Assembly: GCA_902806205.1 (NCBI GenBank) | Contig: CADCVR010000086.1 | Coordinates: 1 to 48,753 of the forward strand | Length of the DNA stretch: 48,753 nucleotides | DNA from: an uncultured Solirubrobacteraceae bacterium | Lineage (GTDB): Bacteria > Actinomycetota > Thermoleophilia > Solirubrobacterales > Solirubrobacteraceae | Reading direction: 5' to 3' | In this document: piece after piece, positions 16,779-18,163 of the stretch | Layout: every line of letters starts with the position of its first letter | Numbering within the stretch: position 1 is the stretch's first letter | The notes under the pieces: model-generated | Seen by the model: only the letters and a program-made list of their open reading frames with translations | Database searches by the model: none | Told to the model about the DNA's origin: nothing | Translations under genes and position numbers: made by a program

Positions 16779-16858
16779 AGTCCTCGAGGGTCTGGCGGCG
16801 CACACGCGCTTGCGGTGATGCGAGCAGGCCCCTGGGTGAACGCTATCCTGCTGGTCAC

Positions 16859-16886
16859 CGCGCGCCACCGCGAAGGTGGCTGCGCG
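16859..16886 (+). promoter_or_regulatory. structured 5' leader hairpin before the 35-aa zinc-ribbon gene
   Basis: An 11-bp stem with one bulged T (CGCGCGCCACC at 16859-16869 against 16875-16886) and loop GCGAA. It sits 8 nt before a strong AAGGAGGG ribosome site. A TATCCT hexamer at 16844-16849 would place transcription start just before the hairpin. Confidence 0.5.
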
Positions 16887-16905
16887 CGAGAACGAAGGAG
16901 GGACC

Positions 16906-17013
16906 ATGCGAGTCCTCTGCCTCCGCTGCCTCAAGCTCTGGGCCCCAGAGCGCGTCACGCACCGGGCCAGCTGCCCGAACTGCGGCGGCGCGCTTCAGGC
17001 GCGACCGAGCTAG
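16906..17013 (+). CDS. 35-aa zinc-ribbon microprotein
   Basis: A tiny gene, ATG to TAG, with an excellent Shine-Dalgarno sequence (AAGGAGGG at 16895-16902). The protein has two cysteine pairs, C5-L-R-C8 and C23-P-N-C26, followed by GGAL: a minimal zinc ribbon. The residues between them (LKLWAPERVTHRAS) form a basic linker. There is no membrane segment. I do not know a named family. Such ribbons bind nucleic acid or act as adaptors, but nothing here decides that. Coding potential is supported by the ribosome site, the cysteine spacing and the structured leader. Confidence 0.65.
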   Translation: MRVLCLRCLKLWAPERVTHRASCPNCGGALQARPS

Positions 17014-17220
17014 CAGCCCCAGGCCCCCGACGCCCCGCACCGGCAATACCGCCGCGGCGGGGCGAACCGGCCCGTCCTACGCCGGCGGGGCGCTACCCTG
17101 TCGTCGTCGTCCTTCTTTGCGTGGGGAGGGCGGCACGGAAGGCACGCAACGGCCGTGAGCTCCCCGAGGGGCGCCCGGTGCGGCGGAACGTCACAACGAC
17201 CTCTGGCCGATGGAGCCGCC

Positions 17221-17547
17221 GTGCCGCATGCTCGCCTCAGCATCGATGTCCGCCCCGACCGGGAGCGCGTGATCCTGGTTCCCCGTGGGGACCTCGACCA
17301 CTTCACCGCCCCGCTGCTGCGCGAGGCCGTCGCCGAGGTCGTCGCCGTGGGCTGGCGCGACGTCGTACTCGACCTCCGCGGCCTCGAGTTCATGGATTCG
17401 GGTGGCATCCATCTGCTCGAGGATCTCCGCGACGGCGCCCTCGGGGACGCGGACTACCGCATGGTCGACGGCGTCGGCCCAGTCGCGCTCCCGCTCAGCC
17501 TGACCGGCTCCCCGCGGCTGCTTCCGGCCGCCGACGTTGATAACTGA
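17221..17547 (+). CDS. STAS-domain anti-sigma-factor antagonist-like protein
   Basis: 108 aa from the GTG at 17221, which has GGAG 6 nt upstream; a GTG at 17155 would add 22 residues without STAS character. The domain reads LSIDVRPDRERVILVPRGDLD, then VVLDLRGLEFMDSGGIHLLEDL. Ser60 in MDSGG is the position phosphorylated in SpoIIAA/RsbV proteins. Such proteins bind anti-sigma kinases and release stress sigma factors. No anti-sigma kinase or sigma factor is adjacent. The next gene begins 1 nt after the stop. Confidence 0.78.
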   Translation: MPHARLSIDVRPDRERVILVPRGDLDHFTAPLLREAVAEVVAVGWRDVVLDLRGLEFMDSGGIHLLEDLRDGALGDADYRMVDGVGPVALPLSLTGSPRLLPAADVDN

Positions 17548-17548
17548 C

Positions 17549-17740
17549 GTGCAGTGCTGCGAGCGGTGCGGCCGCATCTACGCTCCTTCGAAGGCGCCTG
17601 ACGCGTGCGGTGGATGCGGCGGCAAGCTCGAGAAACGCCTCGCGCAACAGGCCGGAGCGCTCGCCGAAGCTCGTTGCCGGCGCCTGCAGCACGACCGACG
17701 CACACAGTGGCGCCAACGCGCCGGGCCCTGGGCACCCTGA
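17549..17740 (+). CDS. small zinc-ribbon protein
   Basis: 63 aa from GTG, 1 nt after the STAS stop. C4-E-R-C7 and C20-G-G-C23 form a zinc ribbon at the N-terminus (CCERCGRIYAPSKAPDACGG then C). The remainder is a basic, Gln/Arg-rich helix. Function unknown. A TTG at 17537 in the same frame is an alternative start. The link to the STAS gene suggests co-expression, but a fortuitous ORF is possible because codon constraints are weak in the second half. Confidence 0.5.
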   Translation: MQCCERCGRIYAPSKAPDACGGCGGKLEKRLAQQAGALAEARCRRLQHDRRTQWRQRAGPWAP

Positions 17741-17770
17741 CGGCCTACCCCGAGCCGGATGAGGAGACCG

Positions 17771-18163
17771 ATGGCCCAGGACACTGCGGAACCCCAGATC
17801 GGCGTTCTGCTCCAGATCTCCAACGAGATGGGACGCGTGTACAAGGAGCAGTTCGGTCGCGGGCCGACCCGCGTGCGCACCGAGTTCGCTTCGCCCGACA
17901 CGATCCTCGTCATCCTGGAGAACTCGCTGACGGCGGCCGAGCGGGCCCTCGTGACCCTGGGCGAGCACGAGCGCCTGCGCAACAACCGCATCTTCCTCCA
18001 GTACGCGAGCGTGGCCGAGTTCTGCGCGCCCGTGGAGCGCATCACCGGCCGCACCGTACGAGCTTTCGTCAGCGGCATCGACACCGTCGAAGACGTCTCC
18101 GTCGAGACGTTCTCGCTGCATCCCGAGGGGTCGGCCGCGGTCTCCCGCGCGTCGCGAAGCTAG
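17771..18163 (+). CDS. DUF2294-like protein
   Basis: 130 aa. The pattern LLQISNEMGRVYKEQFGRGPTRVRTEFASPDTILVILE is characteristic of DUF2294 (N-terminal helix, then a GP-x-x-V-x-T strand), followed by LTAAERAL and a helical region, then ITGRTVRAFVSGIDTVEDVSVETF. The biochemical role of the family is unknown; it is found in stress and gas-vesicle-type contexts. No signal peptide or membrane segment. GAGGAG lies 5-10 nt before the ATG. It is 30 nt after the small zinc-ribbon gene and probably belongs to the same transcript as the STAS gene. Confidence 0.75.
   Translation: MAQDTAEPQIGVLLQISNEMGRVYKEQFGRGPTRVRTEFASPDTILVILENSLTAAERALVTLGEHERLRNNRIFLQYASVAEFCAPVERITGRTVRAFVSGIDTVEDVSVETFSLHPEGSAAVSRASRS

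What the first reader, a model, noticed from the sequence alone, without database searches (positions are those of the whole stretch)
16844..17013. 35-aa zinc-ribbon microprotein with a structured leader
Seen: TATCCT hexamer, an 11-bp hairpin with loop GCGAA, an 8-nt purine ribosome site, then a 36-codon ORF with two CxxC pairs. Such a strong ribosome site is uncommon in this window. Inference: a real microprotein, perhaps controlled by its leader RNA (zinc, temperature or translation). Below the usual annotation length, so easily missed.
Basis: partly seen in the sequence, partly recalled or inferred. Interest (0 to 1): 0.52.

Follow-up and report, generated by a model that had tools for sequence, protein, structure and literature searches.

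The report
Zinc-ribbon microprotein with start-codon hairpin
A real, conserved 35-amino-acid zinc-ribbon protein, far below usual annotation size, is made from its own small gene in soil bacteria of one family; its messenger RNA appears to fold over its own start signal, and in swimming relatives the gene is often preceded by flagellum-type promoters.

Summary
The ORF at 16906-17013 is a real gene. Intact homologs, all keeping the four cysteines, occur at 34 places in 29 of 146 Solirubrobacteraceae genomes, including all 8 of the window's genus. Outside the family no convincing copy was found. Close pairs show dN/dS 0.08-0.43. No Pfam or NCBIfam model reaches its cut-off.

The better-supported RNA element lies elsewhere: the ribosome-site/spacer region pairs with the first codons, leaving the AUG in or near the loop. 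The partners change together across lineages: own-pairing beats cross-pairing (p about 2e-5 over 13 classes), while 29 control genes show no such effect. The window's own copy of this hairpin is weak taken alone. Predicted folding barely changes with temperature, so a thermometer is not supported.

Unexpectedly, 15 of 34 copies carry a promoter-like site matching that of flagellins, and 7 of 34 lie directly downstream of a cold-shock-protein gene. The window's genome has no FlhA hit, and its copy has a sigma70-like box. Function is inferred: a small regulator.

The parts
16842..16849 (+). GCTATCCT, sigma70-like -10 box (TATCCT 16844-16849)
   Evidence: GCTANNNT stands 42-103 nt before the first aligned codon in 9 of 34 homologs, 0.37 expected (pattern chosen after inspection); at -62 to -66 in the two nearest relatives although flanks diverge. 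No E. coli-type promoter found.
16859..16886 (+).
   Evidence: similar layout in G002 and G005, not in G003, G004, G007, G033a; marginal against shuffles
16895..16902 (+). ribosome-binding site AAGGAGGG
   Evidence: 7/7 site in 1 of 269 called genes versus 9 of 14 microprotein representatives
16893..16925 (+). start-codon hairpin: SD/spacer pairs with codons 2-7, loop AUGC 16906-16909
   Evidence: own z -0.06, not unusual alone; comparative support
16906..17013 (+). ORF of the 35-aa zinc-ribbon microprotein, stop TAG
   Evidence: 34 intact homologs with four Cys; dN/dS 0.24 and 0.35 with G005 and G002
17031..17064 (+). 3' stem-loop just after the ORF, probable terminator without a T run
   Evidence: z -4.35, 0 of 200 shuffles as good; strong stem within 80 nt of the stop in 31 of 33 homologs, against 23% of random windows; nearly identical in G002 and G005

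Best explanation
This is a self-contained gene (promoter, leader, one short ORF, 3' stem-loop) for a 35-aa protein that most likely folds round one zinc ion held by CxxC...CPxC (fold and zinc inferred). Its mRNA carries an unusually strong ribosome site that is partly buried in a hairpin with the first codons, the start codon lying in or near the loop. In the family the pairing has been kept by coordinated change on both sides (shown by comparison), so translation initiation is probably held low or made conditional on something that opens the hairpin, such as an RNA chaperone, the protein itself or another factor (inferred). In flagellated relatives many copies have a flagellin-type (sigma28-like) promoter site or lie behind a cold-shock-protein gene (sequence shown; expression inferred). 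The likely role is a small basic nucleic-acid-, ribosome- or polymerase-binding regulator tied to motility or growth state. In the window's apparently non-flagellated genome it is driven by a sigma70-like promoter.
For: Conservation and intact frames; dN/dS well below 1; own versus crossed pairing of the start hairpin, p 5e-5 with 14 SD-bearing representatives and 2e-5 with 13 classes, no such effect in 29 and 17 control genes, helix scores above controls; 3' stem-loop; flagellin-type promoter sites in 15 of 34 upstreams versus 7 of 220 controls, sole TTCAG-type site of two whole genomes; cold-shock gene directly upstream in 7 of 34; zinc-ribbon-like model.
Against: In the window the start hairpin is bulged and no better than shuffles (z -0.06) and its contiguous score of 12 is reached by 6 of 29 controls. 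Gene by gene, synonymous shuffles usually pair as well. G074 and G075a lack the hairpin. The helix measure and promoter pattern were chosen after seeing the sequences, and related loci are not independent. The window has no sigma28-like site (6.5 bits). Model confidence is moderate (pTM 0.42) and fold matches have E 0.28 or worse. No expression or binding data exist here.
Confidence: 0.6

Rival explanations
1. The microprotein is real and functional, but the start hairpin is a by-product: a strong SD followed by high-GC Leu/Cys/Val codons pairs easily, and there is no regulation.
For: Single-gene synonymous and upstream shuffles are mostly not significant; the window's own start hairpin is ordinary.
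Against: Own pairs beat crossed pairs, which composition alone cannot give; control genes with strong SDs show neither the scores nor the own-pair effect.
Confidence: 0.25
2. One reading: the 5' hairpin of the leader is a sensor (zinc, temperature) that controls translation.
For: Hairpin present in the window and at the same place in G002 and G005 despite diverged leaders; marginal stability excess.
Against: Absent from congeners G003, G004, G007 and from G033a; no Rfam match; predicted ribosome-site opening hardly changes from 10 to 55 C.
Confidence: 0.08
3. The inverted repeats at the start codon are operators for a DNA-binding regulator, not RNA hairpins.
For: Some arms are perfect DNA inverted repeats (GGATCA...TGATCC; AGATCTTC...GAAGATCT; AGGACCA...TGGTCCT).
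Against: Arm sequences differ between lineages, and several helices need G-U pairs (window, G003, G007, G001, G018, G063), which only RNA tolerates; the arms track the ribosome site and AUG.
Confidence: 0.07

Closest known systems
C(P)XCG zinc-finger micro-proteins of Haloferax volcanii (HVO_0758, HVO_2753; PMC10716476, abstract and passages read)
   Same: Under 70 aa, two CxxC-type pairs, basic; there, deletion reduces motility and chemotaxis gene expression and swarming, and here many relatives carry a flagellin-type promoter site.
   Different: Archaeal; no sequence homology shown (Pfam HVO_2753_ZBP 14.7 bits, cut-off 33.2); first pair here is CxxCL, not CXCG; motility role here only inferred, and the window's genome lacks a FlhA hit.
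Small zinc-ribbon families: DUF1272, DUF5817, DUF7129, rubrerythrin-like NF033497, FmdB-type TIGR02605, RNA polymerase subunit P NF001608
   Same: Similar spacing of Cys pairs; weak matches (best E 0.0003-0.006).
   Different: None reaches its curated cut-off for the window protein.
Start-codon hairpins that tune translation, such as the MS2 coat-gene initiator hairpin (recalled, no paper read)
   Same: AUG in or near the loop, SD in or beside the stem, strong SD offsetting the structure.
   Different: Chromosomal microprotein gene; effect on translation untested; arms drift between lineages.
RNA thermometers that hide the SD (recalled; only search listing seen)
   Same: SD paired near the start codon.
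   Different: Predicted SD opening from 10 to 55 C is small (0.17 to 0.29).

Membership tests
C(P)XCG zinc-finger micro-proteins | Protein under 70 aa with two C(P)XCG motifs | tested here: inconclusive
   35 aa; second pair CPNCG fits, first pair CLRCL lacks the glycine
C(P)XCG zinc-finger micro-proteins | Sequence membership of the HVO_2753-like Pfam family PF07754 | tested here: not met
   14.7 bits against a cut-off of 33.2
C(P)XCG zinc-finger micro-proteins | Zinc binding | not testable with these tools
   four Cys kept in 34 of 34 homologs; no assay possible
Any curated small zinc-ribbon family (Pfam, NCBIfam) | Score above the curated cut-off | tested here: not met
   window protein below every cut-off
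RNA thermometer | Ribosome site opens on warming | tested here: not met
   computed SD unpaired probability 0.17, 0.23, 0.29 at 10, 37, 55 C; prediction only
Flagellar (sigma28-type) regulon gene | Flagellin-type promoter upstream, in the window | tested here: not met
   best site 6.5 bits, matched or beaten by 17% of control upstreams
Flagellar (sigma28-type) regulon gene | Flagellin-type promoter upstream, in relatives | tested here: met
   15 of 34 upstreams at 12 bits or more versus 7 of 220 controls; sole TTCAG-type site in G035 and G062
Known riboswitch or Rfam leader | Match at gathering score in 16844-17013 | tested here: not met
   only RNase P and a tRNA elsewhere in the window

The most novel reading that the evidence does not exclude
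A previously undescribed family of zinc-ribbon microproteins acts as a motility/growth-state regulator in Solirubrobacteraceae. Its gene has been moved between two modes of control: copies under a flagellin-type promoter with little or no leader, a poor ribosome site or none, and no hairpin; and SD-bearing copies, some behind a cold-shock gene, whose translation is gated by a start-codon hairpin kept by compensatory change, possibly opened by the neighbouring cold-shock RNA chaperone or closed by the microprotein itself. Some copies combine a flagellin-type promoter with the hairpin. Lineages without flagella, such as the window's, keep the hairpin-gated form under a sigma70-like promoter.
Probability: 0.25. 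Interest if true: 0.75.

Novelty: new variant of a known kind. Interest (0 to 1): 0.52.

Why it matters
It gives a testable case in which a gene below annotation size has a full comparative dossier: conserved protein, coordinated change of RNA pairing over the start codon, and swaps of promoter type between lineages. If right, bacteria of a poorly studied soil lineage use a zinc microprotein in or near the flagellar regulon, paralleling the Haloferax micro-proteins that swarming needs there, and a start hairpin reaching into the coding region would be a control element that ordinary 5'-UTR searches overlook.

Tried and rejected
Whole-region folding (z -1.28) gave nothing. The Rfam scan gave no leader RNA. 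The PDB profile search gave only E 0.023 or worse. Foldseek gave no match at E 0.001. The E. coli-type promoter and T-run terminator scans found nothing. A thermometer was tested by folding at six temperatures and not supported. A first duplex-energy measure gave a weaker result (p 2e-4 for 18 representatives with SD score 5 or more), and its single-gene shuffles were mostly not significant; I then used a helix score with a bounded loop, chosen after seeing the pairing by eye, so the p-values are not from a pre-set test. Flagellin co-occurrence (25 of 29 genomes with the gene, 39 of 117 without) was not pressed, because it follows genera. The Methanomicrobiales locus L052 (15 residues matched) and G532 (E 4.6e-5, 214-aa open frame) were set aside as chance or another zinc ribbon. 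The sigma28 pattern was built from 7 of 20 stretches fetched upstream of flagellin-domain genes; the other 13 gave no site that I judged clear and were not used. In one search only 20 candidates per genome were scored at most, at most 54, so distant small copies may have been missed.

Full report
What is there. The ORF 16906-17013 encodes MRVLCLRCLKLWAPERVTHRASCPNCGGALQARPS. It lies between a MutM/Fpg-type glycosylase gene and a STAS-domain gene (Pfam matches). Around it, in order, are GCTATCCT (16842-16849), an 11-bp hairpin (16859-16886), AAGGAGGG (16895-16902), the ORF, and a stem-loop (17031-17064; z -4.35, 0 of 200 shuffles as good). This looks like a one-gene transcription unit.

Is it real? 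A protein search of 61 genomes gave 18 places in 16 genomes at E 2.3e-7 or better, with the next hit at E 0.0014; all 8 genomes of the window's genus have it, and none of the 24 genomes from other families of the order has a hit at that level. A profile search of all 146 family genomes held gave 34 places in 29 genomes, 7 of 25 genera. Of 396 phylum genomes, 4 had a match at E 1e-4: 3 in the family, plus G532, a 214-aa frame at E 4.6e-5 that I discount. The GTDB contigs gave 17 loci, 16 from actinobacteria (15 titled as Solirubrobacterales, Solirubrobacteraceae or genera that I place in that order, one only as Actinobacteria) and one archaeal chance match. G007's contig has the length and the match position of Paraconexibacter antarcticus NZ_CP098502, which suggests the window's genus. 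All 34 frames are intact with four Cys. dN/dS was 0.24 and 0.35 for the window against G005 and G002, and 0.08-0.43 over the 16 pairs printed; over all 558 pairs with synonymous differences, many saturated, median pN/pS was 0.53. No Pfam or NCBIfam model reaches its cut-off for the window protein.

It is real but modest: 11 of 200 dinucleotide shuffles fold as well, as do 5.8% of random 42-nt windows. The nearest relatives G005 and G002 have a hairpin of similar layout at the same place although their leaders share little sequence (ungapped identity 18% and 33% in the 20-60 nt before ATG), which is suggestive. But G003, G004, G007 and G033a have short leaders without a comparable hairpin upstream of the ribosome site, so it is not a feature of the family.

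The start-codon hairpin. Reading 34 upstream regions I saw that the SD and spacer are complementary to the first codons: GGAGGAC/GTCCTCT in G003, G004, G006 and G033a; AGGATCT/GGATCCT and GGAGGATC/GATCCTTT in the g12 copies; GAACCG/CGGTTC in G017; AGATCTTC/GAAGATCT in G033b; GGATCA/TGATCC in G021, G064b and G164; AGGACCA/TGGTCCT in G014b. I scored the best helix joining the last 18 upstream bases to the first 21 coding bases with a loop of 3-14. For 14 representatives with an SD of 6/7 or better, own pairs average 14.75 and crossed pairs 10.88; none of 20000 permutations reached the observed value; over all 23 representatives the figures are 13.48 and 10.67 with the same p. With one locus per helix class (13) p is 2e-5; with coarser representative sets (8-12 loci) p is 0.0003-0.006; sliding the upstream window by 10-30 bases brings the score to 9.7-11.3. 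Representatives with a poor SD show nothing (p 0.85, n 5). Among 269 genes called in 400 kb of these genomes, 29 have a comparable SD: mean score 10.0, 3 of 29 at 14 or more, against 10 of 14 microprotein representatives (MWU p 1.9e-4), and their own and crossed scores are equal (p 0.36; second control set of 17 genes p 0.76). G-U pairs in several helices favour RNA over a DNA operator. Against: in the window itself the element is a bulged, mediocre hairpin (z -0.06; contiguous score 12, reached by 6 of 29 controls); natural codons seldom beat synonymous shuffles gene by gene; G074 and G075a lack it; related loci are not fully independent; the measure was chosen after seeing the pairs. Between the window and G005 or G002, the first 12 codons have no differing codon while 10 and 9 of the other 23 differ, in line with a constraint there, though these residues are also conserved in the protein.

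Temperature. Predicted SD accessibility in the window goes from 0.17 (10 C) to 0.23 (37 C) to 0.29 (55 C). A plain thermometer is therefore unlikely; opening would need a factor.

Promoters and neighbours in relatives. From 20 stretches upstream of flagellin-domain genes, 7 gave a clear TCAAG/TTCAG-N14/15-GCCGATCA-like site. A matrix built from these scored 12 bits or more in 15 of 34 microprotein upstreams, 7 of 220 upstreams of other genes and 71 of 3701 random windows; several of the 15 are close relatives. The exact TTCAG form occurs 9 times in 7 genomes (reversed control 0); in G035 and G062 the only site stands before this gene. The TCAAG form occurs 25 times in 7 genomes (reversed control 1); in G035, 4 of its 6 sites lie at 31.9-76.5 kb, among flagellin and FlhA hits. 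All 15 sigma28-like loci are in flagellin-bearing genomes. FlhA is missing in 5 of 12 genomes tested (G000, G002, G005, G015, G021); four of these have GCTANNNT instead, and G021 is cut by its contig end. Flagellin-bearing exceptions with GCTANNNT and no sigma28-like site of 12 bits are G001, G017 and G074. Which of two FliA/WhiG-type sigma factors would be used is unknown. In 7 of 34 loci a cold-shock-domain gene ends shortly upstream on the same strand, 48-125 nt in the six measured (the seventh, G075a, read from a translation); Pfam CSD matches the six distinct proteins at E 8.5e-27 or better. Copies with the flagellin-type site just before ATG (G035, G066, G062a, G064a, G163) have a poor SD or none and no start hairpin of 14 or more.

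Structure. AlphaFold2 gave mean pLDDT 77, pTM 0.42, strand-helix-strand. Foldseek's best matches are EndoQ, sirtuins and PolD (TM by query about 0.6-0.7) with E 0.28 or worse; that the matched stretches are their zinc modules is my reading.

Reading. Shown: a conserved microprotein gene with strong SD, a 3' stem-loop and lineage-wise compensated pairing over the start codon; flagellin-type promoter sites and cold-shock-gene linkage in many relatives. Inferred: zinc ribbon fold, translational gating, regulatory role. The nearest functional parallel is the Haloferax zinc-finger micro-proteins required for swarming (PMC10716476, abstract and passages read); homology is not shown. PMC10746217 (passages read) reports flagellar gene clusters in 41-91% of species in basal actinobacterial classes including Thermoleophilia. 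Searches for print on this combination returned 0, 0, 0 and 1 unrelated paper (listing seen only); the library holds open-licence papers only.

Noticed in passing
17155-18163 (+): STAS-domain gene, then a second small CxxC protein (17537-17740 frame, CCERCGRIYAPSKAP...CGGCGGKLEKR) overlapping the STAS stop, then an MpsC (PF10057) gene; the same order stands in G005 downstream of its microprotein gene.
   Followed up: partly
L157:4149-4979 (window's genome, contig 21): A lone complete flagellin gene (Flagellin_N and _C) among unrelated genes in a genome without a FlhA hit.
   Followed up: partly
12 family genomes, e.g. G035:C1:2489413 and G035:C1:33759: Two FliA/WhiG-type sigma factors above the family cut-off: one of about 280 bits also in genomes without FlhA, one of about 210 bits, in G035, G018, G007 and G003 near flagellin genes.
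   Followed up: no
17029-17064 (+): The 3' stem-loop is nearly identical in G002 and G005 while the leaders have diverged, and its 24-nt core is found once in each of the three genomes.
   Followed up: partly
L083/L104, L086/L111, L100/L108, L103/L109, L101/L102: Five genomes (G033, G014, G064, G062, G075) carry two copies: one behind a cold-shock gene and one elsewhere, in four of the five with a flagellin-type site of 12 bits or more (not G014).
   Followed up: partly
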